NCBI GenBank assembly: GCA_963662175.1
Contig: OY759225.1
Location: forward strand, 6,211,107-6,275,106
DNA: 64,000 bases
DNA from: Aradus depressus
Lineage: Eukaryota > Arthropoda > Insecta > Hemiptera > Aradidae
Direction of reading: 5' to 3'
Under the pieces are notes generated by a model that was not told the origin of the DNA, ran no database searches, and was given only the letters and a program-made list of their open reading frames with translations. Both the position numbers and the translations under genes were made by a program. Shown here piece by piece: positions 5,563-29,070 of this stretch. Positions within the stretch are counted from its first letter, which is position 1. Each line of letters starts with the position of its first letter.

Positions 5563-6908
5563 TCATGTAATGTAAGAAGGTTGATAACCCTGATTGTTTG
5601 AATTCCCTACTCCACTTGAAGAAGTGTCATTCTTGATAATATCAGAAACCTTCTCAGACATCATGATAGTAGCCATCATAGGAGACCCTCTGATGATCTC
5701 TGGATGGACTGCGCTGCCCACCACCCGCAACTTGTCCACTCCTCTCACCCGAAGATCTTTCGAGTTGACCACAGCGTTCCTATCACGAGGACCACCCATC
5801 CGCGCTGTGGACACAGGTAGAGCCATACCGAATGAGGCCTGTCTCATTAGACAATTGAGCAGTTCATTCCCTTTGGTTCCCTTACATCTCGGTGTATAAC
5901 CTGTGAAAAGTTCCGGTGAGTATTTCTTCATTGTGGGTGTATCCATAAAATCAACGGCTGCTTGTAGTCCTCTCCTTAAGAATCTATAATCATCTAAAAC
6001 ACGAAGGTAGTTGGCGTCTATAATGGGTGGATCATACACATCACTGCTCCACAAAGTGACACTTCCACTGCTTTCTGGAACCAGTAACACAACACGAACC
6101 GTTATCACTGGAATATCCTGAATCATAGAAAGATTTTCCGTAGGAGTATTAGAGAAAAACCTAAATTCTATGTTGGGTGGATCCTTACGGTCATTAACAT
6201 CAAAGAAAGCACCTGCTTCTTCTCCTGTTGTCGCCAGAGGACCATTCTTGTTGATAGCAAAGGCTTCGATACTCTTATTCGTCCTCCATACATCTGTGGT
6301 GATTGTAAGCCGTTGATTTATTTTAAAGTACATGTGGACAGCGGGTTGATCTTTTAAGTTTTGTCCAACAGGCAAGTCGACTCTGGGTGTGACCCCAATT
6401 CTGCTCAGTTCTTTCTTGGGACCGATGCCAGATAGCATGAGCAGTTTTGGTGTGTTGATGGGACCTGCGGTTATGATCACTTCCCGATTTGCTTTAACTA
6501 TGTGTTTCTTACCGTTTCTTATGTACTCTACTCCCTGAGCGCAGTTCTTATCATCAATCAGAATTTTCGAAACAAGAGATCTTTTTATTACTGTTAGATT
6601 TCTCCTTTTTGCTGCTGGAACAAAATAGGCTTGTGCAGTGAAACAGCCCTATATCCGTCACTGTGAAGTTGAGTATAATCAATAGCGAATTGATGTTCTC
6701 CATTATAGTCTCGGTGGGAGATGCCAAACTCCACCCCTGCCTTGATGTATTCCGACTTCAACTTGGGGAAGTACCCCGGGTATGAGACAGGGAAAGGCCC
6801 GTTAAATCCATGGATGGTAGAGTTAGCCAGCGCCAGTATCCTATAGTTCTCCAACTTCTTCCAGTAGTAAACAATGTACTTGTAGGCCCATTCTGTGCTG
6901 CCCAGGGC
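5563..6908 (-). pseudogene. GMC oxidoreductase pseudogene (gene 1 of the array)
   Basis: This is only the last-exon part of a GMC oxidoreductase. The second GMC signature (GPINTPKLLMLSGIG) and the C-terminal region up to a normal stop are present. Against gene 2 there is a one-base deletion near 6641, just before the Ala-Gln-Ala-Tyr stretch, which shifts the frame. The 5' end stops at 6908 at a duplication breakpoint, so the splice acceptor and both upstream coding exons are missing and no promoter precedes it. The catalytic positions read Leu (ALPVSTARMGG) and Ser (IRGSPMMAT), as in genes 2 and 3, so these changes predate the truncation. I see no route to a functional protein. Confidence 0.9.
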
Positions 6909-7453
6909 TGAGAATTTCACTCCACAGAGACGATAGAAGATTTAATATGACTCAACAGAAGCGAATCTAGGTCGTTCATGATAAAGACCGGAGTAAAGCA
7001 GGGAAAAAGTCCTAGTTCACTCCTTTACAAAAGAAGAAACTACTGTTGGTGTGATGGAGTTTCTCCAAAGATATCATAAAAATGGAAGAAGGGATCGCGT
7101 ACGAAAAGAGAATGTCCGAGAAAATCAAGGATAAAGACATGATGTCATCCCTGGCGGCTACAGGATAACCGGAGGGAAGAAGGCTAAGACAAACAGCCTG
7201 CGAAGGAAAGGAACAATGTAGCGGAGATCTGCAGGCTAGAGGATGGAGTGGAAAAGATGGATCAGAGGAAACTGGGAGAGAAGGAAGAAAAGTATTGAAC
7301 ATTCTTAAAACGGTATATTTATTTTCTCTATTCGTAATACGTTGAAGGATACAAGATATAGTGTAGCCCTGCTGCATCGATGTTAAGGCATACGAGAGGA
7401 ATGAGCAAATCAAATAAAATACAATAAGAAAAAAAAACTATGATGAAACTTCG

Positions 7454-7459
7454 TTTATT
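7454..7459 (-). terminator. Poly(A) signal of gene 2
   Basis: Minus-strand AATAAA about 50 nt after the stop codon, within a 3' UTR conserved among the paralogues. Confidence 0.6.
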
Positions 7460-7508
7460 AGATAGTTCATAACATTAGCAACTTTTTGTGAAAATAACGC
7501 TCTGGGTT

Positions 7509-10440
7509 TCATGAAATGTAAGAAGGTTGATAACCTGGACTGTTTGAATTCCCTACTCCACTTGAAGAAGTGTCATTCTTGATGATATCAGAAACCTTCT
7601 CAGACATCATGATAGTAGCCATAATAGGAGAGCCTCTGATGATCTCTGGATGGACCGCGCTGCCCACCACCCTCAACTTGTCCACTCCTCTCACCCGAAG
7701 ATCTTTCGAGTTGACCACGGCGTTCCTATCACGAGGACCACCCATCCGCGCTGTGGACACAGGAAGAGCCATACCGAACGAGGCCTGTCTCATAAGGCAA
7801 TTGAGCAGTTCATCCCCTTTGGTTCCCTTACATCTCGGTGTATAACCCGTGAAAAGTTCCGGTGAGTATTTTTTCATTGTGGGTGTATCCATAAAATCAA
7901 CGGCTGCTTGTAGTCCTCTCCTTAAGACTCTGTAATCATTTAAAACACGAAGGTAGTTGGGGTCTATAATGGGTGGATCATACACATCACTGCTCCTCAG
8001 AGTGACACTTCCTTTGCTTTCTGGAACCAGCAACAGAACACGAACCGTTATGACTGGAATATCCTGAGTCATAGAAAGATTTACCGTAGGAGTATTAGAG
8101 AAAAACCTAAACTCTATGTTGGGTAAGTCCTTACGGTCATTGACATTAAAGAAAGCATCTGCTTCTTCTCCTGTTGTCGCCAGAGGACCATTTTTGTTGA
8201 TAGCAAAGGCTTCGATACTCTTATTCGTCCTCCATACATCTGTGGTGATTGTAAGTAGTTTATTTATTTTAAAGTACATGTGGACAGCGGGGTGATCTTT
8301 TAAATTTTGTCCAACAGGCAAGTCGACTCTGGGTTTGACCCCAATTCTATTCAGTTCTTTTCTGGGACCGATGCCAGATAGCATGAGCAGTTTTGGTGTG
8401 TTGATGGGACCTGCGGTTATGATCACTTCCCGATTTGCTTTAACTATGTGTTTCTTACCGTTTCTTATGTACTCTACTCCCTGAGCGCAGTTCTTATCAT
8501 CCATAAGAATTTTCGAAACAAGAGATCTTTTTATTACTGTTAGATTTCTCCTTTTCGCTGCTGGTACTAAGTAGGCTTGTGCAGTGGAGACGGCTCTATA
8601 TCCGTCACTATGAAGCTGAGTATAGTCAATAGCGAATTGATGTTCTCCGTTATAGTCTCGGTGGGGGATGCCAAACTCCACCCCTGCCTTGATGTACTCC
8701 GACCTCAACTTGGTGAAGTACCTGGGGTATGAGACAGGGAAAGGCCCGTTGAATCCATGGATGGGAGATTTAGCCAGCGCTGGTATCCTATAGTTTTCCA
8801 TCTTCTTCCAGTAGTAATCTATGTACTTGTAAGCCCACTCTGTGCTGCCCAAGGCTGCCCAATTTTCGTAATCTTCGACGGATCCTCCGGCATATTGGAT
8901 ATCGTCAACTGAACTTTGTCCTCCGAGAACACGTCCACGAGGGAAACGACATACTCCGTTATATGGTTCATCTGGAAAAAATAAAAATATAACATGATCG
9001 TTAGTCTATATCAGGATTGTTTTCCTTGACATTAACTCTGAGAGATGTGTCAGGAGACCATTACCTAGACAGAAGTCTTTCCTGGGGACTGCGGTGAAGT
9101 TCCAGTCTAAGTCCGTGTTCCAGTAAGCCCTGAAGATACGGAGATTAGTGTTGATAGGCCCCTCGTTTCCACCTGCTTCGATCAACAGCACCGACAGTTT
9201 AGGGTTCTCAGTCAATCTACCAGCCAGCACGCAACCTGTAAATATCAAATCCATTCCATTTCAGTAACCTTAGCACCTACATTTTTATTATTTATTATAC
9301 TCCATTTACCAGGAACATACTGAATTTAGAAGGGTCTGTCCCGCCTACTGATGAGAGGTCCCCCATGGCAATGGAAAAGTCAAATTTGCTGATAAGTGTC
9401 AAAAACTTAAAACCTTTACTTCAACGCATAAGTACATTTACAAGATACCACCTACATTTATGACCTATTCAACAATCTCTTAAAATAAACGTTGTAGAGA
9501 AAACATGATGGCGCATTTTATACTAAATACGATCTTTCGAAGGACGCGCTGAGTTTGCAAGATTCATACCGAACAGCACCCCAAAGTGTCGTTTTCAAAC
9601 CCATTTTTTGACGTTTGCTTGATTCACAAAAAACTATTTAAACCTATCGATAAATTTGTTCTTATCATAAATGTTCAGATAAAAGTAACAGCAGCTCAAA
9701 GAATAAATACAATATATTTGCGTAGGAGAGGGCGCCGGTAGCTCAGTGGTATGAGTGCTTGTCTTCTGAGCTCAAGATCGTGCGTTCGAAACCCGACCGA
9801 GGCGCTTAGTTTATTTTACCTCCCAGACGCCCTCTTTCGGATGGGACGTCAAGCGATGGTCCCGAGTCAGGTACTCAGATACTTAAAGGGGTCTTTAACC
9901 CTAGATGAATAAACATTTAGTGTAGGCAAAATTTAGGATGTCCACCAGAGTGACGAAAGAGCGCTCTGGTAGTAGGCGACCTCGTAGTTAAAGCCCGGGC
10001 ATGAGTCTTCAAACCTAACCTAACCTATTTTTGCGTAGGATATATTACGATATAATATGTTTGTCTTTTTTCTTATTAAAAAAGTTTTTTAACATTACTT
10101 TAAGATAACCTCCACTATAATTATTTATATTTAAATACATATATCTGTACTCTATCCCACATGAAACTAGTCCGCGCAATTATTACATTTAGAAATTTCA
10201 ATATTAATGTAATTTTTCGATGCAGCACCTTACGAGTATATCGTTTTAATTGAAAACAATTAAAATATTACCTGCAGTTCCACCTCCGACGATAATGATA
10301 TCGTATGCATTATTTAGTTCGGATTGGGGAGTGTCAATAACACTAGCTTCAGGGTTGATAAGTTCAGGTCGATAGCGGTAAACGTAGGCCAAATATGAAG
10401 CGAGGAATGCGGCGAAACTCAACTCCAACACCAGCCCCAT
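7509..10440 (-). CDS. GMC oxidoreductase, glucose-dehydrogenase-like; catalytic residues replaced (gene 2)
   Basis: Spliced gene with coding exons 10272-10440, 9065-9235 and 7509-8971, all GT-AG, phase 1, about 600 residues, the normal family length. Residues 1-23 are a hydrophobic signal/anchor, so the protein probably enters the secretory pathway. The FAD motif VGGGTAG (51-57) is split by intron 2, and LLIEAGG (73-79) supplies the ribose-binding Glu. The first GMC signature region is odd (GRVLGGQSSVDD, where GGSSxLN is usual); the second (GPINTPKLLMLSGIG) is canonical. The catalytic His before VxTxxMG is Leu516, and the second catalytic His/Asn is Ser561. The fold and FAD site look sound, but ordinary alcohol or sugar oxidation is unlikely; a pseudoenzyme or altered chemistry is my inference. 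A CAG acceptor abuts the ATG, showing an upstream non-coding exon. Confidence 0.88.
9370..9720. repeat. Conserved intron 2 segment shared by genes 2, 3 and 7
   Basis: This sequence (starting near GCAATGGAAAAGTC, including ATGGCGCATTTTATACTAAA) recurs at 21208-22600 in gene 3, split by a LINE, and at 62177-62560 in gene 7. It is ancestral intron sequence, so insertions within it can be dated relative to the duplications. Confidence 0.75.
9728..10029 (+). mobile_element. tRNA-derived SINE, near full length, with 11-bp TSD
   Basis: The head is tRNA-like, with an A box (TAGCTCAGTGGT) and a B box (CGTTCGAAACC). The SINE body follows and the tail is ACCTAACCTAACCT. TTTGCGTAGGA flanks it on both sides (9717-9727 and 10030-10040). 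The same intron position in gene 7 (about 62540) is uninterrupted, giving an empty site. Confidence 0.9.
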
Positions 10441-10729
10441 CTGAAAGTGTCAGGAACATAGTTAGGGAAAATATACTAACTAGGAACTATAAATAACAAA
10501 AGTAAGCTTAATAGTGTTCAGGACATACAAATTTCATGTAGATACATCCATCGGTTGTTTTTGGGATATATAACTTTGGAGTTGAGGCCCCACACTCTCA
10601 TTCCCCCTCCTCGTTGTCCGGTTTGCCTGATAATTAGTGTCGAATTTTTGGAATCTGGAGGTCGGAAAATATGAAATTCCGTTGAAAATTCCTTATCGAA
10701 TTATTGACCGATTCCTTAACTTCCCCATA

Positions 10730-11135
10730 TACTTCGTATCTATTTGTGTGTCTGTCTTTAAACACTTTAGTCTTGATAGAATGATTGTATCGACATGAAA
10801 ATTTATATGTTTATCCAGAACCCCATAAGAGCAACATCTATTGATTGTCAGCCAAATCGGTAAAAAAAAAGTTTAAATAATTCCACTTGTAATGAAAGGA
10901 AACTTCATATGTAAATTTTAAACTCAATAAGGACGACACCTATTAATTTTCAGTGGAATTGGCCAAAGGGGCTCAAAATGAAAATAGCAATAACTGCTGA
11001 TGGTAATGAATGTAACGACACGCATGTGTAACCAGAGTACTATAAGGATGACATCTATTGATTTTCAGTCAAATCGATCGAAGGGAAGGAGGAATTTGGG
11101 AATGTCACACAAAAACTTTATTTATTATGAATTTA
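10730..11135. repeat. Dispersed internally repetitive element
   Basis: Degenerate units contain ATAAGGACGACACCTATT and GATTTTCAGxCAAATCG with a conserved end (CGAATTxTTGACCGATTxC then ACTTCCCCATATACTTCGTA). The same units recur at 24040-24330, 34190-34400, 39410-39870, 43600-44480, 48110-48390, 50040-50420 and 63020-63300. Non-coding. Confidence 0.6.
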
Positions 11136-11142
11136 TCGACAC

Positions 11143-11423
11143 CCGACCGAGGCCCTTAGTTTATTTTATCTGGGAGGTAAAATAAACTTGAGCACGCCGT
11201 CATTCGGATGGAACGTTAAGCAATGGTCCCGAGCCTGTACGATGTCAGGTACTCGTTAAAGACCCCTGCCCTAGATGAATAAAAATTTAGGGTAGGCAAA
11301 ATTTAGGACTCCCACAGTAGAGTAGGGCTCATGTCCACCAGAGTGACGAAAGAGCGCTCTGGTAGTAGGCGATATGACCTCGTAGTTAAAGCCCGGGCAT
11401 GAGTCATAAAACCTAACCTAACC
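11143..11423 (+). mobile_element. SINE, 5'-truncated, with 7-bp TSD
   Basis: It begins in the B-box flank (CCGACCGAGG) and ends with AAAACCTAACCTAACC. TCGACAC flanks both ends (11136-11142 and 11424-11430). The equivalent intron 1 position in gene 3 (about 24350) lacks it, so it inserted after genes 2 and 3 separated. Confidence 0.85.
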
Positions 11424-11626
11424 TCGACACAACATTTAGTCTGAGAATTCAAATGGCCATATGTAAGTCAAGTATTGGTATTTAGCCCGAACTCTGGATT
11501 GGTTTAGTTTGACCGCAAACACTAAATTCATTAATTCATTTTCTTATTTCTTTTTCACGTAGTATTATTGGTTATAAGACTTGACTCCATTAAAGGCCTC
11601 AAATCGCCCCATAGACGGTTTCAAGT

Positions 11627-11708
11627 ACTTGAAAGAAATAAAACTTGTTTATTTATGATATTGTCATATATAAATATCATAAATAAACAAGTTTCATTTC
11701 TTTCAAGT
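11627..11708. repeat. Imperfect palindrome related to that at 1311-1432
   Basis: The arms CTTGAAAGAAATAAAACTTG and its complement flank a short AT loop. The adjoining TTCATTTGAATTATTTCACA arm is shared with the 1311-1432 element in opposite orientation. Confidence 0.75.
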
Positions 11709-11894
11709 TCATTTGAATTATTTCACAATATCTCTGCAATAATGTCAGTTTTCATGGTTTCAAGTACCCTTTTTTGAGTCTCTCACGCAGTATTGTTGGT
11801 TATAAGACTTGACACCATTAAAGATCTCAAATCGCCCCATAGACAGTTTCAAGTCCCCTTTTTTTTAGTCCTCATCCACTGGTATTGGTTATAA

Positions 11895-12630
11895 TGGGCC
11901 CGGATTCTTAGATCGTAAAAAATGGCAAAATATGCACTTAAATTTTCCCTAAAAACACCTGAAATATGCACTAAGATATGTCAAATAAACTGAATATGCG
12001 GTTAAATATTTCTTTATTTTTCTTTTCACATTAACACAACAAATTATATACTTAAATATAAAATTTATTATAAACATAAGTCATTTTTAATCATATTAAC
12101 GCTCTTAAAAATAATCGACCAGAAAATATCACAATTTACATGAAAGTAAGTATTAATAAACCTTTTTATTTATTCATAAAATTTTTAACACTCTTTTATT
12201 ATCTTGACCTGTAACTTCCTAACACTAACATTGTAAGCAAATCTTACAACTCAATTTCCACCCACTTTTAATTGTCATATCGATTTGAAACTTGGCATAC
12301 TTATACGATTCTGGTGACTACAATAATATGGTACCATCGAGCTTCTATGATGATGGAGATGGGAGGTGATCATAGGGACTTCTCAATAGCAACAATATTA
12401 TACATTTATCACAAAAATATTTAAATTAAGGTCATTTTTAAGCCCTAATCGTTGAAACAATATATGCATTAACCTAGAAAATATGCTCACACTCTTGAAA
12501 TATGCATTCATACGCAAAATGCAATCAATTTATTCCGGGTCAGAATGCACAGAAACTTCCACATTTTCTTAGATATTAGTGTTTTTAGCGCCGCAAAAAA
12601 ATATGCAAAAACCTAAAAATCCGTGCCCTA
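11895..12630. mobile_element. MITE with GGGCxCGGATTxTTAG termini
   Basis: The left end (GGGCCCGGATTCTTAG) and the inverted right end (CTAAAAATCCGTGCCC) form short TIRs. Repeats of AATATGCA lie just inside both ends. Gene 3 has the undisrupted host sequence (GGTTATAAG...CTTGAC). There is no coding capacity; the superfamily is uncertain. Confidence 0.65.
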
Positions 12631-13378
12631 GACTTGACACCATTAAAGGTCTCAAATCCCCCCATACATGGTTTCAAGTCCCCCTTTTTTTCATCTTTCC
12701 CGAAGTATTGTTGGTTATAGGACACCAATAAAAGCCTCCAATCGCCCCACAGACAGTTTCAAGTCCCCTTTGCCCCTGACTTTATTTGCTTCGTTTAAAA
12801 GTACAAAGTTAGTCAAGAAAAGTCGTCGGTGAATCAGTCGCTATGTACATCTCCTCTCAATCAATTAAATTGGTAAATGTATTAAAAATACCTTGAAAAT
12901 CCATTCTAAACTACTTTGCTATAGTATAAGAAAGTAAACATTTTAAAAAGTAAAGAAGTCTTTCATATTGATACTAAATCTGTGCCCTCCACCAAATGAA
13001 CACGAAACTTAAAAATTACTAGTATTGCCCTAATGCAATCTGTTGTGTGTTAAGGCCCCTTCCCTTTGGCCCATTTGACTGAAAATCAATAGGTCTCGTC
13101 AATACAATCATCCTATCAGTTATCGTGCTTACGAACACACTTTTGTATTTAGAATTTTGGAAAACATGAAATTCTGTTGAAAACTTCGTATCGAATTTTT
13201 GACCAATACATAACTTCCCCTATACATCGTATAGTTGGGAAAGTAACACTTTATTTACAGATAAAAGTATTATTTATGAAGATACATAAGATATAAGTTG
13301 TTATTACTTCTTATAGAAAGCCACTAAACTTATATTAGTACCAAAAAAATTAATATGAACTAGATATTCTTTGTATTG

Positions 13379-13585
13379 AGGGCGCTGGTAGCTCAGTGGT
13401 ATATGCTCGCTTACTGAGCTATCAAGTGTTCTTAAAAATCTTAAGCACGCCGTTCTTCGGATGGAGAAAAAAATGTAGAGTAGGCAAAATTTAGAACTCC
13501 CATAGTAGAGTTGGGCTCATGTCCACCAGAGTAAAAAAAAAAACGAACTGGTAGTAGGCGATATGACCTCATAGTTAAAGCCTCG
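13379..13585 (+). mobile_element. SINE copy in gene 2 intron 1
   Basis: It begins GAGGGCGCTGGTAGCTCAGT with an A box and has an internal deletion. It lies 33 bp from the leader-exon donor, as does the gene 3 copy at 24906-25150, so the insertion predates the gene 2/3 duplication. Confidence 0.8.
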
Positions 13586-13617
13586 TTAATAATTAACTAA
13601 CTATACTTGCTACTTAC

Positions 13618-13666
13618 CTTGTAATGCTTAGATAGAACTTATTAATGGCTGGTGAAAATATTTATA
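13618..13666 (-). promoter_or_regulatory. Gene 2 promoter (TATA) and ~18-nt non-coding leader exon
   Basis: TATAAATA lies at 13659-13666 on the minus strand. The predicted start is about 31 nt downstream, near 13635. The leader then runs to a strong donor, AAG|GTAAGTAG, at 13618/13617. The block aligns with those of genes 3-6. The leader splices to the acceptor that abuts the gene 2 ATG at 10440. The start site is inferred from spacing. Confidence 0.7.
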
Positions 13667-13769
13667 CTAACTTTAATCGCTCGAATATTTATCATTTCAT
13701 TATTCATGAAACATGATTTAGATTTTTACATTTTAATTGCAATTATTTTTTTAAATTATCTTTTGAATA

Positions 13770-13783
13770 GTTCATTGTTTGTT
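13770..13783. promoter_or_regulatory. Conserved forkhead-like site, gene 2 promoter
   Basis: GTTCATTGTTTGTT, about 105 bp upstream of the TATA box, contains TGTTTGTT, which fits the FoxA/FoxO core TRTTTRY. It is also present upstream of genes 3, 4 and 5. Factor identity is inferred. Confidence 0.45.
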
Positions 13784-14071
13784 CTCCGTCTGGTTATATA
13801 ACGTTATCCTATATGTAAAAAATGCTTAAGACCCCCAGTTGTAAGATATGTATGCAACTGATACGACGTTGCGTCTCAGTCCACTTATCTGTGTAATATA
13901 TTCGTTAATGTCATCGTAATCCGCGTCCTGTAAGCATCGCTGCCTTTAAACTACTGTATCTTCCAAGGGAAAATTTAACTTCACACCAGTTCCGGAAATT
14001 GTTTAGAGTAAGTGTACTAAATATGGATAACCAATTTACATTGTCTGTACCATTTTATTTGTTGTACGGAA

Positions 14072-14200
14072 ACCTAACCTATTAGCTTATTTTGACTCAT
14101 GCCCAGGCTTTAACTACAAGGTCAAAACGCCTACTACCAGTCCGGTCTTTCGTCACTCTGGTGGACATAAACCCGACTCTACTATGGGAGTCCTAAATGT
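14072..14200 (-). mobile_element. SINE fragment upstream of gene 2
   Basis: Inverse of the SINE body (GCTTTAACTACAAGGTC, TCGTCACTCTGGTGGACAT). The same insertion after GTTGTACGGAAACC is at 25543-25725 upstream of gene 3, so it predates their duplication. Confidence 0.8.
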
Positions 14201-14373
14201 TATAAAATAATAAATAAAAATAAATAGCTCTTTTGACATTCTTTTAGAACAAAAGCCTCTCCTTTTGGAGGTTTTGAGTCTACTGCTCCTTCAACAGAAA
14301 TCAGAAAATCTTGAATAAAGATAAAATAAAAATGAGATAAATCAAAAACAAAAGTAATAAGCGAAAATGAAAG

Positions 14374-15110
14374 TTATTTCTTAAATAATACTGTTACACA
14401 TTTGTTCCATCTTTCTTTGTACCTGGCCACTGTGCACCATCCCTTCCCTATTCTCTCCACTATCTCGTCCCTCCACCGCAGTCCTGGTCTTCCTTTTTCT
14501 CTTCTTCTGTCTCTAGAAATCCACTCCGTGCAGACTTTAGCCCATCGTCGAGGATCCATCCTTGTCACATGCCCGGACCATTTCCACTTCAGCAAGTGTG
14601 CTTCCTTCTGGAGGCTTCTTAGCCTCACCTTCCGTAGAACCTCGCTGTTTCTTATCCTGTCACTTATATTTATACCAAGCATGCTCCCCATCATCCTAAA
14701 TTGGTTTACTTTCAGACGACGATCCAGCTTCTATGTACGACCAGGTCTGTGCACCGTATAGGATGAATGGATAGACGCAGCTCATCAGGATTTTGGCTTT
14801 CAGGTCAACTGCAATACCCCCTTAAGTAATTTTTTCAGAGACCAGTATTTTCTCCATCCTGCTCTAATTCTGCAGTTCACCTCTTTCTCTGTTCGTGTTT
14901 GGAAAGTCAATGTTTGCCCCAGGTACCGGTATTCATCCACGTACTCTATCTCTTCGTTGTGAACTATGATGCATTCTCTTCTTGAATTGGTCATAACTTT
15001 TGTATTTTCCGGGTTTAGCGTCAGTCCTACTTTCCTGCTGGTGGTGGTTAGCTGCGATATCATTGTTTCTAGTTCTTCGCTTGACTTTTCAAGGTTTAAG
15101 AAGGAATTAA
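14374..15110 (-). mobile_element. RTE-like non-LTR retrotransposon 3' fragment
   Basis: The minus strand encodes the region after the RT catalytic motif (LTLNPENTKVMTNS, EYRYLGQTL, WRKYWSLKKLLKG) and the C-terminal tail (LLKWKWSGHVTRMDPRRWAK, RRREKGRPGLRWRDEIVERI). Both are typical of RTE-clade endonuclease-reverse transcriptases. It is split in two by frame changes near 14700-14800 and lacks the YxDD core, so it is dead. Confidence 0.75.
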
Positions 15111-15214
15111 TGAACGTTTTATTCGAGATGACTGTTGATTTTCAAACAAATAAAAACAAATAACTTGTTTAACGTATATATTGTATAGTTTCACAAAACG
15201 TGAGTTTAGCGTAC

Positions 15215-15705
15215 TGTTAAGTCGCGAGTTGAGTGATGGTGAATACGAGAACTCGCCAAAAGAATCGATTTGTTGTTGATGAACTACTTGAGTCAGTAAG
15301 CAGTTGGGCACCACGCGGGGTGGACTGAGTTCGTTGAGTTGGTCGCCACGCGGGGTGGACTGAGTTCGTTGAGTTGGTCGCCACGCGGGGTGGACTGAGA
15401 GTCTGGGTCGAGCCAGCACGCGGTGTACGGAATGGATTCGTCCTTATTACCACGCGGGTATAAGGTGAGTCGTTAGTTACCATGCGGAAGTGAGTTGTTT
15501 ATTACCACGCGGGTATAAAGTGAGTCGTCTGTTACCAAGCACAGTAAGTGAGTGACTTGTGTAGTTCCCACGCGGTATGGGACTTATTATTGAACAACTG
15601 ACTTTGTGTTCGTTACCACGCGGTTTTGTAATAAGGGTGTTGTCCAAATATATATATCTCTGGTTCTACTCGAAGTTCTCATTTAACCTGTACCCAAACC
15701 CAACA
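15215..15705 (+). mobile_element. BEL/Pao LTR, left copy (491 bp)
   Basis: It runs from TGTTAAGTCGCGAG to CCCAACA. In the right copy it is followed at once by a PBS-like TGGTCCTCCGGGCCGG. It contains three copies of a ~35-bp repeat and about nine CCACGCGG-type motifs. In this copy the PBS region carries extra inverted sequence. Confidence 0.8.
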
Positions 15706-17350
15706 TGGTTTTTACCGGGCCATGGTTTTTACATGGACTGTATTACTTACTTTAATCCGGCCCGGAGGACCATGTATTGAATGCGCCGGTCGATCTGGTA
15801 TTGGGAGCGGAAGTTCTCGCGACCATCATGCGACCGGAGATGGTTCCGCCCCAACTAGGTTCACCAACCGCATTCAATACATGGTCCTCCGGGCCGGATT
15901 AAAGTAAGTAATACAGTCCATTTCATTTCATTATTTTCAATTTCAAAATGTCGCGAAGAAAGTCAAATTAGTCGACTTAGAAAAAACGACAACCCATCGG
16001 CACTAGCGCCGACGCCGTAGATCTTCTGCTGCTGAGAAGACTGCACCTCCCGCTACCGCGAACGAACCCACCTGCGACGCCTCTTCTGCGCAAGCTGAAC
16101 CGACACTTCAGCGCTCGCGCCTCCAGCCTCTTTGGATGAAGCCTGCAACCCACGACCTCAACGCACCAATTGGCCTACTCATCGCATGCCTGGACGCAAA
16201 AGTCGGCTCGGACAGCCGCCTTCCAATCCACGAGGCACTAAGATCACCACTCGCACACCATTCGCTACACTGATGCATGTCGCCTCCGCTCCGTTCATGG
16301 ACGACTTCCGCGCCTTTTCTCGCGATTCGCACGCTGCATGAGCTGGCTGATCGGGAGCTGCAGCGGTACCCGCTCGCGTCAGAAGTGCTCTTGAAGGAGA
16401 CCTACGGGGACGACAACGCTCCGCCGCAATCCTGGAAGCTGGGACGGACCACCCAGCTCTACCGGGGGCAAGACGCGATCGCGCGAGTCGCGGATGTCGC
16501 AACGACCACCGGGGTCGTGCGCAGACCCCCTTTCGCGACTATGCCCGCTCCCAACGCAATAATGAAGCCGAGCCTTCATGGGGGGCGGGAAGTTAAGTCG
16601 CGAGTTGAGTGATGGTGAATACGAGAACTCGCGACTTAACATCCCGCCCCCCATGAAGGCTCGGCTTCATTATTGCGTTGGGAGCGGGCATAGTCGCGAA
16701 AGGGGGTCTGCGCACGACCCCGGTGGTCGTTGCGACATCCGCGACTCGCGCGATCGCGTCTTGCCCCCGGTAGAGCTGGGTGATCCGTCCCAGCTTCCAG
16801 GATTGCGGCGGAGCGTTGTCGTCCCCGTAGGTCTCCTTCAAGAGCACTTCTGACGCGAGCGGGTACCGCTGCAGCTCCCGATCAGCCAGCTCATGCAGCG
16901 TGCGAATCGCGAGAAAAGGCGCGGAAGTCGTCCATGAACGGAGCGGAGGCGACATGCATCAGTGTAGCGAATGGTGTGCGAGTGGTGATCTTAGTGCCTC
17001 GTGGATTGGAAGGCGGCTGTCCGAGCCGACTTTTGCGTCCAGGCATGCGATGAGTAGGCCAATTGGTGCGTTGAGGTCGTGGGTTGCAGGCTTCATCCAA
17101 AGAGGCTGGAGGCGCGAGCGCTGAAGTGTCGGTTCAGCTTGCGCAGAAGAGGCGTCGCAGGTGGGTTCGTTCGCGGTAGCGGGAGGTGCAGTCTTCTCAG
17201 CAGCAGAAGATCTACGGCGTCGGCGCTAGTGCCGATGGGTTGTCGTTTTTTCTAAGTCGACTAATTTGACTTTCTTCGCGACATTTTGAAATTGAAAATA
17301 ATGAAATAAGATGGACTGTATTACTTACTCTAATCCGGCCCGGAGGACCA

Positions 17351-17888
17351 TGTTGGGTTTGGGTACAGGTTAAATGAGAACTTCGAGTAGAACAAGAGAT
17401 ATATTTATTTGGACAACACCATGAGAACTTCGAGTAGAACCAGAGATATATATATTTGGACAACACCCTTATTACAAAACCGCGTGGTAACGAACACAAA
17501 GTCAGTTGTTCAATAATAAGTCCCATACCGCGTGGGAACTACACAAGTCACTCACTTACTGTGCTTGGTAACAGACGACTCACTTTATACCCGCGTGGTA
17601 ATAAACAACTCACTTCCGCATGGTAACTAACGACTCACCTTATACCCGCGTGGTAATAAGGACGAATCCATTCCGCACACCGCGTGCTGGCTCGACCCAG
17701 ACTCTCAGTCCACCCCGCGTGGCGACCAACTCAACGAACTCAGTCCACCCCGCGTGGCGACCAACTCAACGAACTCAGTCCACCCCGCGTGGTGCCCAAC
17801 TGCTTACTGACTCAAGTAGTTCATCAACAACAAATCGATTCTTTTGGCGAGTTCTCGTATTCACCATCACTCAACTCGCGACTTAACA
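17351..17888 (-). mobile_element. BEL/Pao LTR, right copy (538 bp)
   Basis: Same LTR on the minus strand, from TGTTAAG at 17888 to CAACA at 17351, with an intact PBS-like TGGTCCTCCGGGCCGG next to it. It is 47 bp longer than the left LTR because of a tandem duplication at about 17372-17466. Confidence 0.8.
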
Positions 17889-18012
17889 TCCCGCCCCCCA
17901 TGAAGCCGAGCCAGGAACACTGGACGATGTAAAGGCGGGAGTAAGAAATAAGAAGAACAAAGAGCAAATCAATGATAATACCATAAGAAAATAAAACTAT
18001 GATAAAACTTCG

Positions 18013-18018
18013 TTTATT
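18013..18018 (-). terminator. Poly(A) signal of gene 3
   Basis: Minus-strand AATAAA about 50 nt past the stop, in conserved 3' UTR sequence. Confidence 0.6.
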
Positions 18019-18067
18019 AGATAGTTCATAACATTAGCAACTGTCTATGAAAATAACGCTTTGGGTT

Positions 18068-21000
18068 TCATGAAATGTAAGAAGGTTGATAACCTGGACT
18101 GTTTGAATTCCCTACTCCACTTGAAGAAGTGTCATTCTTGATAATATCAGAAACCTTCTCAGACATCATGATAGTAGCCATAATAGGAGAGCCTCTGATG
18201 ATCTCTGGATGGACCGCGCTGCCCACCACCCGCAACTTGTCCACTCCTCTCACCCGAAGATCTTTCGAGTTGACCACCGCGTTCCTATCCCATGGACCAC
18301 CCATCCGCGCTGTGGACACAGGAAGAGCCATACCGAACGAGGCCTGTCTCATTAGACAATTGAGCAGTTCATTCCCTTTGGTTCCCTTACATCTCGGTGT
18401 ATAACCTGTGAAAAGTTCCGGGGAGTATTTTTTCATTGTGGGTGTATCCATAAAATCAACGGCTGCTTGTAGTCCTCTCCTTAAGATTCTATAATCATTT
18501 AAAACACGAAGGTAGTTGGCGTCTATAATGGGTGGATCATACACATCACTGCTCCTCAGAGTGACACTTCCTTTGCTTTCTGGAACCAGCAACAGAACAC
18601 GAACCGTTATGACTGGAATATCCTGAATCATAGAAAGATTTTCCAAAGGAGTATTGGAGAAAAACCTAAATTCTATGTTGGGTAAGTCCTTACGGTCATT
18701 GACATTGAAGAAAGCATCTGCTTCTTCTCCTGTTGTCGCCAGAGGACCATTTTTGTTGATAGCAAAGGCTTCGATACTCTTATTCGTCCTCCATACATCT
18801 GTGGTGATTGTAAGCCGTTGATTTATTTTGAAATGAATTTCGACAGCGGGGTGATCTTTTAAATTTTGTCCAACAGGCAAGTCGACTCTGGGTTTGACCC
18901 CAATTCTGCTCAGTTCTTTCTTGGGGCCGATGCCAGATAGCATGAGCAGTTTTGGTGTGTTGATGGGACCTGCGGTTATGATCACTTCCCGATTTGCTTT
19001 AACTATGTGTTTCTTACCGTTTCTTATGTACTCTACTCCCTGAGCGCAGTTCTTATCATCAATCAGAATTTTCGAAACAAGAGATCTTTTTATCACTGTT
19101 AGATTTCTCCGTTTCGCTGCTGGAACTAAGTAGGCTTGTGCAGTGGAGATGGACTTATATCCATCACTGTGAAACTGAGTATAGTCAATAGCGAATTGAT
19201 GTACCCCGTTATAGTCTCGGTGGGGGATGCCAAACTCCACCCCTGCCTTGATGTACTCCGACCTCAACTTGGTGAAGTACCTCGGGTACGAGACAGGAAA
19301 AGGCCCATTGTGACCATGGATGGGAGAGTTAGCCAGCGCCGGTATCCTACTATAGTTTTCCATCTTCTTCCAGTAGTAATCTATGTACTTGTAGGCCCAC
19401 TCTGTGCTGCCCAGGGCTGCCCAGTTTTCGTAATCTTCGATGGATCCTCCGGCGTATTGGATATCGTAAACTGAACTCTGTCCTCCCAGAACACGTCCAC
19501 GAGGAAAAGGGCATACTCCGTTATATGGTTCATCTGGAAAGAATAGAAATAAAACATGATCGTTAGTCTATATCAGGATTGTTTTCGTTGACATTAACTC
19601 TGAGAGATGTGTCAGGAGACTTTTACCTAGACAGAAGTCTTCCCTGGGGACTGCGGTGAAGTTCCAGTCTAAATCCGAGTACCAGAAAGCCCTGAAGATG
19701 AAGAGGTTGGTGTTAATAGGCCCTTCATTCCCACCTGCTTCGATCAACAGCACCGACAGTTGTGGGTTTTCAGTCAATCTACCGGCGAGCACGCAACCTG
19801 TAAATATCAAATCCATTACATTTCAGTAACCTTAGCACCTGCATTCTAATTATTTATTATTCTCCATTTCCCAGGAACTGGACCGATCCCGATGTTTAAC
19901 TTTCACAACAATTTTTTAGCACAAACAATCGAATCCTTACTCCGAAACTGAGGAATGGAAGACCTACGTTTTTCTTTTAGAAATGTGATATTGAACTTAT
20001 CTTGCCTGTACCAACACTTCTCCCCTTTTCTGACACTGACCATGTATACATGTATGTTTTATGTTCTCCTGACACATAGCTTGAACATACAAACAACAAA
20101 CTTCAAACTCATTGATATGGTTGTTAAGTTGTTAGCTATGCCAGATTCCAGGACTCCAGAAACGTATTATAATAGTCATATAAATAAAAGACGCTGTCTT
20201 TCCACTGTTTTTGAAGACAACGTGAGAAATCTCGTTCCACAACACACATATTATAATAGTCTCTTAGATTTAGAAGACTGTTGTATTCTTAGAAGACTGT
20301 TCTATTAGTGTCTATGAATTAAAATCGGTAGGTCAAATAAAATATATTTTCTGTAATTAACCGTATTTCTGCTCAGAGAATTACTTGATGTTCCAAGTAC
20401 CTTTGTGGAAAAGCAGACTGATAGCGCAGCGAAGACAGTCTTGGATGAGGAAGGTGAGAAGGAGCACCTACGGAGTGGAGTGTGAAAAGGTGGGATCCAT
20501 CTGTAACCTAAGTGAAGAGGTGGGTTCCATCTGTAACCTAAGTGAAGAGGGGAATCTGTCCCATGTGCTGACGAGGTGTCCCATACGTACTGAATCTAGC
20601 AAGGTCTAACCCACTTACTGACGAGGTGTCCCCTATCATCATCATCATCATCATAGGCGCTACAGCCCGTCAAGAGCCTTGGCCTCCTCCAGGAAATGTC
20701 CCCATGCAGCTCTGTCCTGGGCCAGTCTCCACCAGCCCACCCCACCAAACCGTCTTGCGTCTCTGTTCACGGTCTCCAGCCATCTTCTTTTGGGTTGTCC
20801 CACTCTTCTCCTACCCTCCGGTGTTACATTAACGAGTTTCCTGGGTACGAGGTCCTCGTCCATCCGTCTTACATGTCCAGCACAACGGCGTCTAGTCCTA
20901 ACTCTAATCCAGTGCGACAATTTTGGTTCTGTGTAGAGTGCGTACAACTCCTGGTTGTATCGGATGCGCCAGGCGCCCTCCTCCGAGGTGGGACCGAAGA

Positions 21001-23765
21001 TCTTGCGGAGTATCCCCCCCCCCCCCCCCCCCTCTCGAAGATGTCAAGACGCCTATCTTCCGCCGCAGTGAGGGTCCACGTCTCCGACCCGTATGTCAGC
21101 ACTGGCCTCACAAGCGTCTTGTACTGCAGCACCTTCATGTCCCTGGGCAGCAGCCGGGATTTAAATTGTGACTGGAGGCCATAGTAACTCCGTTAGGTGT
21201 CCCCTATAGCAATGGAAATGTCGCATGTGCTTAAAAAACTTAACTTCAAGGCCTAAGTAAATTTCACAAGTTACCACCTACATTTATGACCAATCTCTTC
21301 CAATAAAATTTGTAGAAAAAAAAAGATGGCGCATTTTATACCAAATACGATCTTTCGAAGGACGCGCTGGGTTTGCAAGATTCATACCGAACAGCATCCC
21401 AAAGTGTCGTTTTCAAACTTTTTTTTACGTTTGTTTGGGCACCCGGGGCTGCTCTTCAAACTGAAACACTTCCTTCCCAGTACCTACTACCTCATCCTGA
21501 AATCTTACCTTAGTGATCGCCATTTCAAGGTCCGAGTAGGCTCTGAGTACTCAGAACTGATACCTATTCGGGCCGGTGTCCCACAGGGTAGCATCCTAGG
21601 TCCCATCCTTTACAATACATATACTGCCGACATTCCTATCCATCCTCAGACATTACTGACGACTTACGCTGACGACACAGCAATCCTTTCCACCAATCCT
21701 GATCCTGCTGTAGCCTCACTCATCCTCCAGGAGCACCTCACTGAAATAGAGAGGTGGTGCAACCTCTGGAGAATTAAATTAAATGAGCAGAAATGTGTTC
21801 AAGTCACATTTACCCTACGCCCTCAATCCTGTCCTCCCGTCATCATTAACAACATCCTGATTCCCTCTTCAAACCAAGTCCGCTATCTCGGGTTTTACCT
21901 AGACAGTAGACTTACGTGGAACCCACATACACGACTTAAACGACAAGAACTGAATCGAAGATACGGACTGTTACGTCGACTACTTGGACCAAAATCGAAA
22001 CTGACGACTAACAACAAACTTACGATTTACAAGACCATTATACGTCCAATTTGGATTTACGGACTCGAACTTTGGGGTACAGCTAAACAATCCAACATCA
22101 ATCGTATCCAAGCATTCCAGTCCAAACTCCTCCGACGAATTGTCAACGCTCCTTTCTATGTCACCAATAAAGTCCTACACAGAGATCTCAGTATTCCCAC
22201 TGTAAATGAATTAATCAAATCCCGATTCCAATCATTCCACAGAAACCTTTCTTCCCATTCAAATCCTCTCGCACAAGACCTTTCCTCTCATTCCCATCCT
22301 GACAATCCTCCCCGCCGCTTGAACAGGAGGTGGCCTCGCGATCTTCTCTCGGAGGATAGTGAATAATGACAATTAACTTTCGAGGGAGTGTCAGCGCTGG
22401 CTGGCTTCTCCCATCAAGTGACGTTATATTTTTCTTTTACCACATATTTGCTTATTATGTATATATTGTATATAGATTGCAAATAGAATAAAAAAAAAAA
22501 AAACGTTTGTTTGATTCACATAAAACTGTTTAAACCTATCGATAAATTGGTTCTTATCATAAATGTTCTGATAAAAGTAACAGCGGCTCAGAGACTAAAT
22601 ACTATAAAATACCTTTATATTTAGTCAACCCTTTGGTAGTGAGGCAATTAGGTATAAAACTTTCAAAATACTTTATTTCATTATTCTCTTTTTTCTTAAG
22701 ACGCTTCGACTACATTCGTCATTTTCAATTCTAAAAAACAAGTCAAAATTTTAAAATTAACATTAATTATGACTTTCACAACCAATATTTTTCCATAACA
22801 TTATCACATAATTAAGAACAAATAAGGACTTACCAAACAAATACAGATAAATCCGTATAATTTATTCATTCCAAATTTCTTTTTCAGGAATGTCGTCACA
22901 AATTAGTATATTTTTCACATTATTTAATTTTTAAAATTATACATATTTCAATTACAATAGTAAAAATAACATATAGCCTTGTTATAACCTACTCAATTAT
23001 AATTTATTTAAAATCGATGTTTAAATTTCATTTTTTTAAATTATATATATTTTACCAAGTATATTTTTTTATTTTATCTTGTTTAAGATATATGAATAAT
23101 GTGCTCCTATTTTTTCGGCATCTGTTTTATAATTTACTAAGCTATCTTGATCTTTCGAAAACATAATCAATTATTGATTCTTTTATTAATAAGTAATGTT
23201 AAATTAAAAATTTTGACTTGTTTTTTAGAATTGAAAATGACCAATGTAGTCGAAACGTCTTAAGAAAAAAGAAAATAATGAAATAAAGTATTTTGAAAGT
23301 TTTATACTTACCTAATTGACTTACTACCAAAGGGTTGACTAAATACTATATTTTAGCGTAGGAAATATAACGATATAATATGTACGTCTTCTTTCTTATT
23401 AAAAAAAGTTTTTTAACATTACTTTAAGATAACCACCTCTATAATTAGTTAAATTTAAATACTTCATATCTTGAGTCTACTCCACATAACATAAAAGTAG
23501 TCCGCGCAATCATTCCATTTAGAAATTTCAATATTAATATAATTTTTCGATACAGCACTTTATATCGTTTCAATTTAAAAAAAATTAAAATCTTACCTGC
23601 AGTTCCACCTCCGACGATAATGATATCATATGCATTATTTAGTTCGGATTGGGGAGTGTCAATAACACTAGCCTCAGGGTTGATAAGTTCAGGTCGATAG
23701 CGGTAAACGTAGGCCAAATATGAAGCGAGGAATGCGACGAAACTCAACTCCAACACCAGCCCCAT
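18068..23765 (-). CDS. GMC oxidoreductase, glucose-dehydrogenase-like; catalytic residues replaced (gene 3)
   Basis: Coding exons 23597-23765, 19627-19797 and 18068-19533 (phase 1 introns) give about 601 residues. The N-terminal anchor, VGGGTAG FAD motif and second GMC signature (GPINTPKLLMLSGIG) are intact. As in gene 2, the two catalytic positions are Leu517 (ALPVSTARMGG) and Ser562 (IRGSPIMAT) instead of His/His. The first signature region is GRVLGGQSSVYD. An extra Ser codon sits in ENYSRIPA, and Trp replaces Arg in GGPWDRN. Gene 2 is the closest paralogue; they share introns, promoter and old SINE insertions. Intron 2 is 3.8 kb because an RTE, a Jockey and a long-TIR element inserted there. 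The open frame after this divergence suggests selection rather than decay. Confidence 0.87.
20490..20549 (+). repeat. 30-bp tandem duplication in gene 3 intron 2
   Basis: GTGGGATCCATCTGTAACCT AAGTGAAGAG is followed at once by a near-identical unit. It sits in an ORF remnant ending GNLSHVLTRCP, possibly LINE knuckle debris. Confidence 0.6.
20637..21194 (-). mobile_element. RTE-like LINE, 5'-truncated, with 13-bp TSD
   Basis: The minus strand encodes YKTLVRPVLTYGSETWTL and CAGHVRRMDEDLVPRKLVN, then KRRWLETVNRDARRFGGV. It ends in an (ATG)n-type microsatellite, usual for RTE 3' ends. AGGTGTCCCCTAT flanks both ends (20624-20636 and 21195-21207). A 19-base C run at 21014-21032 breaks the frame. 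Confidence 0.85.
21437..22502 (+). mobile_element. Jockey-clade LINE, 5'-truncated, poly(A), 10-bp TSD
   Basis: One open frame to 22366 encodes the RT palm and thumb: GVPQGSILGPILYNTYTADI, then TTYADDTAIL with the catalytic YADD, WCNLWRIKLNEQKC and RYLGFYLDSRLTWNPHTRLK, and a normal C terminus. A poly(A) tail follows, and ACGTTTGTTT flanks both ends (21427-21436 and 22503-22512). It looks young, but it lacks ORF1 and the endonuclease and cannot move by itself. It lies antisense in gene 3 intron 2. Confidence 0.9.
22622..23341. mobile_element. Non-autonomous TIR element with ~130-bp inverted ends
   Basis: TAGTCAACCCTTTGGTAG at the left matches CTACCAAAGGGTTGACTA at the right, and complementarity continues about 130 bp into AAAATTTTGACTTGTTTTTT. 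The core is AT-rich and non-coding. A flanking TA or longer imperfect repeat is possible. Genes 2 and 7 lack it at this site. Confidence 0.85.
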
Positions 23766-26818: not shown

Positions 26819-29070
26819 TCATGAAATGTAAGAAGGTTGATAACCTTGATTGTTTGAATTCTCTATTCCACTTGAAGAAGTGTCATTCTTGATGATATCA
26901 GAAGCCTTCTCAGCCACCATAATAGAAGCCACAAGAGGATGACCCCTGATGATCTCTGGATGGACCGAGTTGCCCACCACCCGCAACTTGTCCACTCCTC
27001 TCACACGAAGATCTTTCGAGTTGACCACCGCGTTCCTATCCCGTGGACCACCCATCCGCGCTGTGGAGACAAGATGGCTCATACCAAATGAGGCCTGTCT
27101 CATTAAGCAGTCGAGAAGTTCATCCCCTTTGGTTCTTTCACATGCCGGTGTATAACCTGTGAAAACTGTAGGTGAGTATTTTTTCATTGTGGGTGTATTC
27201 ATAAATTCCATGGCTGTTTTAACACCTTTTCTTAAGGTTCTATAATCATCTAAAACAGTAAGATATTTGGGGTCTATAACAGGTGGGTCATACAAATCAC
27301 TGCTCCTCAGAGTGACACTTCCACTGCTTTTTGGAACCAACAACAAGACACGAACAGTTATCAGTTGAACATGCTGAGTCATATTCAATCTTTCCAAAGG
27401 AGTACTTGAGAAAAACCTAAGTTCTATGTTGGGCAAGTCCTTACGGTCATCGACATTTAGAAAAGCATTCGCTTCTTCTCCTGTTGTCGCCAGAGGACCA
27501 TTCTTGTTGATAGCAAAGGCTTCGATACTCTTATTAGTTCTCCATACATCCGTAGTTAGAGTAAGTCGTTGATTTATTTTGTAGTAAATTTCGACAGCGG
27601 GGTGATCTTTTAAATTTTGTCCAACAGGCAAGTCGATTCTTAGTTTGACCCCGATTCTGCTCAGTTCTTTTCTGGGACCGATCCCAGATAGCATGAGCAA
27701 TTTTGGTGTGTTGATGGGGCCTGCGGATAGGATTACTTCCCGATTGGCATTGACGGTGTGTTTCTTACCGTTCCTTATGTACTCTACTCCCTGAGCGCAG
27801 TTCTTATCATCAATAATAATTTTCGAAACACGAGATCTTTTTATTACTGTTAGATTTCTCCTTTTCGCTGCAGGGACTAAATAGGCTTGTGCAGTGGAAA
27901 CGGACTTGTATCCATCACTGTGAAGCTGTGTATAATCAATAGCGAATTGATGTTCTCCATTATAGTCTCGGTGGGGGATGCCAAACTCCACGCCTGCCTT
28001 GATGTACTCCGACCTCAACTTGGTGAAGTACCTGGGGTACGAGACAGGGAAAGGCCCGTTGAATCCATGGATGGGAGAGTTAGCCAGCGCTGGTATCCTA
28101 TAGTTTTCCATCTTCTTCCAGTAGTAATCAATGTACTTGTAGGCCCACTCTGTGCTGCCCAGGGCTGCCCAATTTTCGTAATCTTCGATGGATCCTCCGG
28201 CATATAGGTTATCGTCATATGAACTTGTTCCACCCAAAACGTGTCCACGAGGAAGAGGACATACTCCACCATAGTCGTCTGGAAAAAGAAAAAAATAGTA
28301 CAGCATATCAGAAATGTTTTTCTTGTTATCAATTCTCAATGGCATTCAGGTGACTCGTTCTCCATTATAGAAGTGTTTAAAGAGACCTTTACCTAGGCAG
28401 AAGTCATTCCTGGGTACTGCGGTGAAGTTCCAATCTAGGTCGGTATTCCGGACAGCCCTGAAGATGAAAAGGTTGGTGTTGATAGGCCCTTCATCTCCAC
28501 CTGCTTCGATCAACAGCACCGACAGGTTAGGGTTCTCGGTCAATCTGCCAGCGAGCACGCAACCTGTGAATATCAAATCCAATTAATTTCAGGAACCTCA
28601 GTTACCATGTCTACGGTCTTATTATTTACTGTACTCCATCTCTCAAGAGCAGATTCTATCTTGATTCTTAACTTTCCACAGCGTTATTTCATCCTCGCCA
28701 ATCACATCCTGTTTTTGAAAACATAATGGTTGGCATGTACGGAAAAATAAAAAAATTCTCTATTCGGATTGGCCGTAGTTCAGAAATGGAAAGGAGGTTC
28801 ATTTTGACCACTTAACAGACTATTTTCACAGCGTAAAATATCGTTTTGGGATAAGACTTATACGTCTTAATACGTTTTAATTTAAAAATAAAGAAGAACC
28901 TTACCTGCAGTTCCACCTCCGACGATAACAACGTCATATGCACTATTTAATTCAGATTGAGGAGTGTTAGTAACACTAGCCTCAGGGTTGATAAGTTCAG
29001 GTCGATAGCGGTAAACGTAGGCCAAATATGACGCGATGAACGCGCCGAAACTCAATTCGAGAAGCCCCAT
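26819..29070 (-). CDS. GMC oxidoreductase, glucose-dehydrogenase-like (gene 4)
   Basis: Coding exons 28905-29070, 28393-28563 and 26819-28278 give about 598 residues. The first exon is one codon shorter than in its paralogues (MGLLELS). The hydrophobic N terminus, VGGGTAG, LLIEAGG and GPINTPKLLMLSGIG are present. Both catalytic positions are His: His514 (MSHLVSTARMGG) and His559 (IRGHPLVAS), the His/His pair of glucose-oxidase-type GMC enzymes. The usual Asp after LRVV is Gly (LRVVGNS). The likely role is FAD-dependent oxidation of a sugar or alcohol in a secretory or extracellular setting; the substrate cannot be told. Introns are short (341 and 114 bp). The 4.2-kb intron 1 holds a minisatellite and Penelope-like remnants. 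Confidence 0.9.

What the first reader, a model, noticed from the sequence alone, without database searches (positions are those of the whole stretch)
5563..23765. Three array members have lost both GMC catalytic residues
In genes 4-7 the two positions equivalent to glucose oxidase His516 and His559 are His and His (e.g. LAHGVSTARMGG and ISGHPLMAT). In genes 1, 2 and 3 they are Leu and Ser (ALPVSTARMGG and IRGSPIMAT). Genes 2 and 3 keep full-length frames, FAD motifs, splice sites and promoters. Known GMC chemistry needs a base at these positions, so these products are likely pseudoenzymes or have new chemistry or a binding role.
Basis: partly seen in the sequence, partly recalled or inferred. 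Interest (0 to 1): 0.88.

Follow-up and report, generated by a model that had tools for sequence, protein, structure and literature searches.

The report
Insect oxidoreductase copies lacking catalytic residues
In a row of seven related insect flavoenzyme genes, two intact copies and one broken copy have lost both amino acids that normally do the chemistry, and the two intact copies still look preserved by natural selection, so they probably do something other than the usual alcohol oxidation.

Summary
The window holds a seven-gene, minus-strand GMC array from an insect, probably a true bug. Six copies have intact three-exon frames. Gene 1 is a 5'-truncated, frameshifted relic, so the finding concerns two intact genes plus one relic. 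At the catalytic pair, genes 1-3 read Leu/Ser and genes 4-7 His/His. None of 226 homologues has Leu/Ser; 220 keep the first His.

Added here: losses are graded along the array. Of 61 family-invariant positions, genes 7, 6, 5, 4 and 2/3 lose 4, 5, 6, 7 and 9. Homologues lose a median of 1 and at most 5, so genes 6-7 sit in the tail and genes 2-5 beyond it.

Best reading: selectively kept GMC pseudo-oxidoreductases. Substituted catalytic residues in insect GMC proteins are already in print, so this is a variant of a known kind. No expression, orthologue or activity data were obtainable.

The parts
5563..6911 (-). Gene 1: 5'-truncated, frameshifted GMC relic (Leu 5820-5818, Ser 5685-5683)
   Evidence: No exon 1/2 found between it and gene 2; coding similarity starts near 6911; 1-nt deletion near 6640
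7509..8971 (-). Gene 2 exon 3 (Leu516 at 7766-7764, Ser561 at 7631-7629)
   Evidence: Open frame, GT-AG splice sites; PF00732 and PF05199 hits
9065..9235 (-). Gene 2 exon 2
10272..10440 (-). Gene 2 exon 1 with GGGTAG FAD motif
18068..19533 (-). Gene 3 exon 3 (Leu517 at 18325-18323, Ser562 at 18190-18188)
   Evidence: AlphaFold2 model pLDDT 92.8
19627..19797 (-). Gene 3 exon 2
23597..23765 (-). Gene 3 exon 1 with GGGTAG FAD motif
26819..29070 (-). Gene 4 (exons 29070-28905, 28563-28393, 28278-26819), pair His514/His559
34962..37205 (-). Gene 5 (exons 37205-37037, 36699-36529, 36421-34962), pair His515/His560
45672..49713 (-). Gene 6 (exons 49713-49545, 47380-47210, 47110-45672), pair His515/His560
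58775..62945 (-). Gene 7 (exons 62945-62777, 60490-60320, 60234-58775), pair His515/His560

Best explanation
Genes 2 and 3 are selectively maintained GMC-fold pseudo-oxidoreductases; gene 1 is a dead sister copy. Within a tandem array of a bug GMC lineage, one ancestor lost the catalytic base (His to Leu) and its partner (His to Ser) during a rise in amino-acid change in the catalytic part, then duplicated, and its descendants came back under purifying selection. Shown: residues, intact frames, predicted fold, single origin in the tree, rates. Inferred: the proteins still hold FAD (dinucleotide motif intact) but no longer abstract the alcohol proton, so canonical alcohol oxidation is lost or cut by orders of magnitude. 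The most likely working role, inferred only, is to bind the ligand of the array's other members, or to pair with them, without turning it over.
For: Alignment to solved enzymes. Pair tally over 226 homologues. g2 versus g3: dS 0.146, dN 0.027. Codon ML on six genes: L/S tips w 0.22 versus fixed 1, 2dlnL 48.8, p 2.9e-12; in codons 481-601 tips 0.075, p 1e-4. Stem w 0.94 versus background 0.35, p 0.002; codons 241-601 stem 1.40, p 0.0002; codons 1-240 stem not different, p 0.77. Nonsynonymous 36 of 1388 sites versus 57 of 720 non-coding sites, p 7e-8 (counts, test; intron 1's aligned 5' piece, 49 of 272, was left out of the 720 and would strengthen the contrast). The one coding indel is 3 nt. 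L/S clade support 100/100 in a tree of 27 rows. Fold. Chemistry of loss: AmPDH H512A lowers kcat/KM about 1e5-fold, H556 variants two to three orders (PMC4950071, passages incl. abstract). In a PDH saturation library 7.4% of H512 and 20.7% of H556 clones were active (PMC3948749, passages). [quoted passage not shown]
Against: No expression, protein or activity data. No orthologue in another species was listed (best homologue 46%; capped lists), so maintenance rests on one within-genome duplicate pair. Gene 1, now dead, also shows low w (0.28), so low w reports the past. The L/S tips are only marginally below background (p 0.05). Gene conversion inside the array can distort rates: the closest paralogue changes between segments and exact shared tracts exist. 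Against non-coding yardsticks (0.067-0.206 per site) the ratio is 0.13-0.40. MsHi-1 H521A kept its kcat (PMC13076199, passages), so losing this His need not kill every GMC activity.
Confidence: 0.5

Rival explanations
1. New flavin-dependent or acid-base chemistry (isomerase, lyase or similar) in which other residues replace the His pair. A candidate is the array-specific His in the VHPEI loop (g2 H554), with Ser561 as a polar partner.
For: His at that column in all six intact array genes and in 0 of 226 homologues (M 178, I 23, F 19, V 3, T, A, W 1 each). Insect GMC hexenal isomerases show that GMC proteins can do chemistry without net redox change (PMC13076199, passages). CtFDO has a His-Ser pair (PMC8171062, passages). 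The rate rise falls on codons 241-601 and constraint follows.
Against: H554 is shared with the His/His genes, so it did not arise to replace the lost His. No coordinates were available to measure its distance to the flavin. Stem w is not shown to be above 1 (p 0.42, 0.43, 0.20). The MsHi-1 Asn559 position, where Ala abolishes isomerase activity, is Ser here.
Confidence: 0.2
2. Residual or altered oxidoreductase: still a slow dehydrogenase using solvent or another residue for proton removal, biologically useful on an activated substrate.
For: AmPDH H512A keeps a very low but measurable activity (PMC4950071, passages). The GxGxxG motif and 52 of 61 family-invariant positions remain.
Against: Both residues are lost together, plus the near-invariant Asn, Arg, Asp and Ser. 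Published single losses cost about 1e2-1e5-fold in PDH.
Confidence: 0.13
3. Decay in progress: genes 2 and 3 are dying or recently dead copies on the same path as gene 1, and their low dN/dS is inherited or homogenised by gene conversion.
For: Gene 1 is dead with w 0.28. Stepwise loss of invariant residues along the array. Stem w not different from 1. Shared exact tracts suggest conversion.
Against: Genes 2 and 3 split after the catalytic loss and still show w about 0.2, intact frames and splice sites, only an in-frame indel, and no protein change in codons 541-600.
Confidence: 0.15
4. Artefact of assembly or gene prediction.
For: None found. The array is repeat-rich, where collapse could occur.
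Against: Three copies share L/S with differing surrounding synonymous sites; frames and introns agree; no N in the window.
Confidence: 0.02

Closest known systems
Insect GMC oxidoreductases (GLD/GOX/GMC cluster; PMC1891103, passages) and bug-clade relatives P0001-P0004, P0121, P0123-P0128, P0197 (P0001, P0004, P0126, P0128 unnamed, placed by the tree)
   Same: GMC domains; genes in a tandem array as in the insect cluster; conserved Cys and N-glycosylation sequons
   Different: 10 of these 12 relatives keep His first. Intact array genes lose 4-9 of 61 invariant positions; genes 1-3 lose the pair. Whether flotillin-2 lies nearby was not searched
Inactive lepidopteran hexenal-isomerase homologues (C. 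virescens PCG76483, PCG69794 and others; PMC13076199, passages)
   Same: Natural insect GMC paralogues with substituted catalytic residues, including Leu at the C-terminal His (taken by me to be the MsHi-1 H521 position)
   Different: There inactive in one assay; no selection analysis was seen in the passages read. Here both pair residues are lost in a constrained duplicate pair
CtFDO of Chaetomium thermophilum (6ZE2; PMC8171062, passages)
   Different: CtFDO keeps the catalytic His564
Manduca hexenal isomerase MsHi-1 (PMC13076199, passages)
   Same: GMC protein doing chemistry without net redox change
   Different: Keeps an H/N pair; N559A is inactive, while genes 2/3 have Ser there
Halyomorpha halys P0003 (Arg/Asn), Nezara viridula P0124 (His/Ser), unnamed P0128 (Gln/Gly)
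   Same: Other members of the bug clade with an altered pair
   Different: They lose only 1-2 of 61 invariant positions; none is L/S

Membership tests
GMC superfamily (fold/homology) | GMC_oxred_N and GMC_oxred_C domains | tested here: met
   PF00732 and PF05199 well above cut-off in exon 3 of genes 2, 3 and 7, the three tested
GMC superfamily (fold/homology) | GMC three-dimensional fold | tested here: met
GMC superfamily (fold/homology) | N-terminal GxGxxG dinucleotide-binding motif | tested here: met
   GGGTAG in exon 1 of genes 2-7; absent from the gene 1 relic
GMC superfamily (fold/homology) | PROSITE PS00623 signature (pattern as quoted in PMC12198266) | tested here: not met
   Asn position is Asp in five and Tyr in one of six intact genes; N in 216 of 222 homologues with a residue there. 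Gene 1 lacks the region. Pattern compared by eye
GMC superfamily (fold/homology) | PROSITE PS00624 signature (pattern as quoted in PMC12198266) | tested here: met
   GPINTPKLLMLSGIG in all six intact genes, compared by eye
Catalytically competent GMC oxidoreductase | Catalytic His at first pair position (GOx His516) | tested here: not met
   Leu in genes 1-3; met in genes 4-7
Catalytically competent GMC oxidoreductase | His or Asn at second pair position | tested here: not met
   Ser in genes 1-3. Not strictly required in known GMC proteins (PMC8171062, passages)
Catalytically competent GMC oxidoreductase | Flavin reduction by an alcohol substrate | not testable with these tools
   Needs purified protein
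Pseudoenzyme (maintained catalytic-residue-null paralogue) | Catalytic residues lost, fold kept, purifying selection | tested here: met
   fold by prediction for gene 3 exon 3 only
Pseudoenzyme (maintained catalytic-residue-null paralogue) | Expressed protein without the ancestral activity | not testable with these tools
   No transcripts or assays available
GMC hexenal isomerase (MsHi-1 type) | Essential Asn at second pair position (N559) | tested here: not met
   Ser in genes 1-3, His in genes 4-7
GMC hexenal isomerase (MsHi-1 type) | (3Z):(2E)-hexenal isomerase activity | not testable with these tools
   Needs assay

The most novel reading that the evidence does not exclude
The whole array is a bug GMC lineage being converted step by step from flavin alcohol oxidases into something else. 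The PS00623 Asn is lost in all six intact genes, the near-invariant Asp of the LRVVD motif in genes 1-5, and the catalytic pair in genes 1-3, while a new loop His is shared by all seven. Genes 2 and 3 would then be selectively maintained GMC proteins with both catalytic residues gone and a new binding or non-redox function.
Probability: 0.22. Interest if true: 0.72.

Novelty: new variant of a known kind. Interest (0 to 1): 0.47.

Why it matters
GMC genes are numerous in insects (15-23 in the four genomes tabulated in PMC1891103, passages), and homology naming assumes His-based alcohol oxidation. A tandem array with graded loss of invariant and catalytic residues, ending in constrained Leu/Ser copies beside a dead sister, is a natural series for asking how an enzyme fold is retired or repurposed. 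It also warns against naming such genes 'glucose dehydrogenase' by homology. The pair has been altered elsewhere in the bug clade too (Arg/Asn, His/Ser, Gln/Gly), so the question can be tested comparatively in true bugs.

Tried and rejected
Assembly artefact: rejected for the reasons given under rivals. A second His standing in at the same columns: not found. Positive selection on the stem: w above 1 in three segments, but none differs from 1 (p 0.42, 0.43, 0.20), so relaxation cannot be told from selection there. The segments were chosen by eye and overlap, without correction for multiple tests. Leu/Ser relatives elsewhere: a search with words from gene 3 residues 440-596 gave 7 proteins; the four read have His at both positions by eye and three were not read. 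Gene 1 as a functional copy: rejected. Salivary or scent-gland role: literature context only. Pyrrhocoris saliva holds glucose dehydrogenases (PMC12825922, passages), but no GMC proteins were detected in Halyomorpha saliva (PMC3935659, passage), so no claim is made. Printed work on bug GMC arrays with lost catalytic residues: none seen in the listings, which show at most 20 papers each of an open-licence library. Structure: only exon 3 of gene 3 was modelled, because the spliced protein is not contiguous in the window. No coordinates were available, so no flavin distances were measured. The fold match shows fold, not function.
Full report
Setting. The 64-kb window is insect DNA by its protein relatives and introns. 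The best named relatives are Halyomorpha halys GMC proteins (42-43% identity), and a profile search adds Nezara, Cimex and Rhodnius. In a 27-row tree the array is one clade (100/100) inside a 19-row clade (100/99) whose named members are all bugs. The species is unknown, and no listed protein is over 46% identical. The host genome tool did not complete (eight tries).

Gene models. Mapping H. halys P0002 on the window and reading splice sites gives six intact three-exon genes of 592-601 codons on the minus strand, all with GT-AG introns, and a seventh copy, gene 1. Gene 1 lacks exons 1 and 2, starts inside exon 3 near 6911, and carries a one-base deletion near 6640; it is a relic. In five of the six intact genes the ATG directly follows TTTCAG (g6: TTTAAG).

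The observation. In the three alignments to solved GMC enzymes shown for gene 3, Leu517 falls opposite His in all three, and Ser562 opposite His, Asn and His. Gene 7's His515/His560 fall at the same places. Genes 1-3 read CTA/CTT and TCT; genes 4-7 read CAT at both places. Among 226 homologues collected, the pair is H/N in 152, H/H in 63, H with another residue in 5, and the first residue is not His in 6. Two of 226 lose both (P0113 D/G, P0128 Q/G), and none is L/S. The sample is the best-scoring hits of capped lists, so it favours conserved proteins; of the six without His, three have Asp, and P0211 has a His one residue earlier.

Family history. Leu/Ser arose once by the tree (clade support 100/100). 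Other bug-clade members have a changed pair: H. halys P0003 R/N, Nezara P0124 H/S, P0128 Q/G. The last two are sisters.

The array as a whole. At 61 columns that are at least 95% identical among the 226, gene 7 has lost 4, gene 6 5, gene 5 6, gene 4 7, genes 2 and 3 9. The homologues themselves have a median of 1, a 90th percentile of 2 and a maximum of 5. Genes 6 and 7 are thus in the tail of the homologue range, not outside it; genes 2-5 are beyond it. Defining columns on random halves and counting on the other halves gives held-out means of 1 (median), 3.4 (95th percentile) and 4.8 (maximum; highest over 20 splits 6), against 8.6 for genes 2 and 3 and 3.8 for gene 7 (as low as 2 in one split). 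Losses include the PS00623 Asn in all six intact genes (N in 216 of 222 homologues with a residue; none has Asp) and the Asp of the LRVVD motif in genes 1-5 (D in 224 of 226) (gene 1 by its reading). All seven array genes carry His at a column where the homologues have M 178, I 23, F 19, V 3, T, A and W 1 each.

Selection. Genes 2 and 3 differ by dS 0.146 and dN 0.027 (ratio 0.18). The stem on which the pair changed has w 0.94, above background (p 0.002). The stem excess lies in codons 241-601 (1.40, p 0.0002) and not in 1-240 (0.31, p 0.77). Stem w does not differ from 1. With gene 1 included the picture is the same: L/S 0.24, stem 1.05, gene 1 0.28. Against upstream, intron 2 and 3' flank (57 of 720 sites differ) nonsynonymous sites (36 of 1388) are constrained, p 7e-8; intron 1's aligned 5' piece (49 of 272) was left out and would strengthen this. 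These yardsticks vary from 0.067 to 0.206 per site, so the ratio may be 0.13-0.40. Caveats: the array has a mosaic pattern suggestive of gene conversion, and gene 1 shows that a low ratio survives gene death for a while.

What the loss should do. In pyranose dehydrogenase H512A costs about 1e5 in catalytic efficiency and H556 variants two to three orders (PMC4950071, passages); saturation at these sites left 7.4% and 20.7% active clones (PMC3948749, passages). In aryl-alcohol oxidase H502 is the base and H546 binds substrate (PMC12198266, passages). Against this, MsHi-1 H521A kept its kcat with a 25-fold efficiency loss, while N559A was inactive (PMC13076199, passages). The second site is Ser, Pro or Arg in some GMC proteins (PMC8171062, passages).

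Conclusion. Canonical alcohol oxidation by genes 2 and 3 is unlikely, yet they look kept. The best reading is a maintained pseudo-oxidoreductase with a binding or partner role (0.5). New chemistry, decay and residual redox follow. Substituted catalytic residues in insect GMC paralogues are already in print (PMC13076199, passages), so the kind is known. The constrained double loss and the graded erosion along one array are what this adds.

Noticed in passing
window 7509-62945, e.g. g2 H554: All array genes carry a His in the loop VHPEI where 226 homologues have Met or another residue and never His. It lies seven residues before the second catalytic position.
   Followed up: partly
window exon 3 of genes 2-7: The near-invariant PS00623 Asn is Asp or Tyr in all six intact genes, and the Asp of LRVVD is Gly in genes 1-5: a graded loss along the array.
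   Followed up: partly
P0003, P0124, P0128 (relatives): Other bug-clade GMC proteins have altered catalytic pairs (R/N in Halyomorpha halys, H/S in Nezara viridula, Q/G in an unnamed source); P0124 and P0128 are sisters in the tree.
   Followed up: partly
window 21290-22366: Reverse transcriptase reading frame (PF00078) on the plus strand inside intron 1 of gene 3.
   Followed up: no
window 15302-17801: Stretch with 30-35-bp tandem repeats at both ends in opposite orientation, foldback-like, containing a DUF5641 fragment at 16593-16958; G+C is 0.55 in 16001-18000.
   Followed up: no
window 29129-29573: Thirteen copies of a 34-bp tandem repeat directly upstream of gene 4 exon 1.
   Followed up: no
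window 40604-41466: About 340-bp inverted repeat pair, 97% identical, upstream of gene 5.
   Followed up: no
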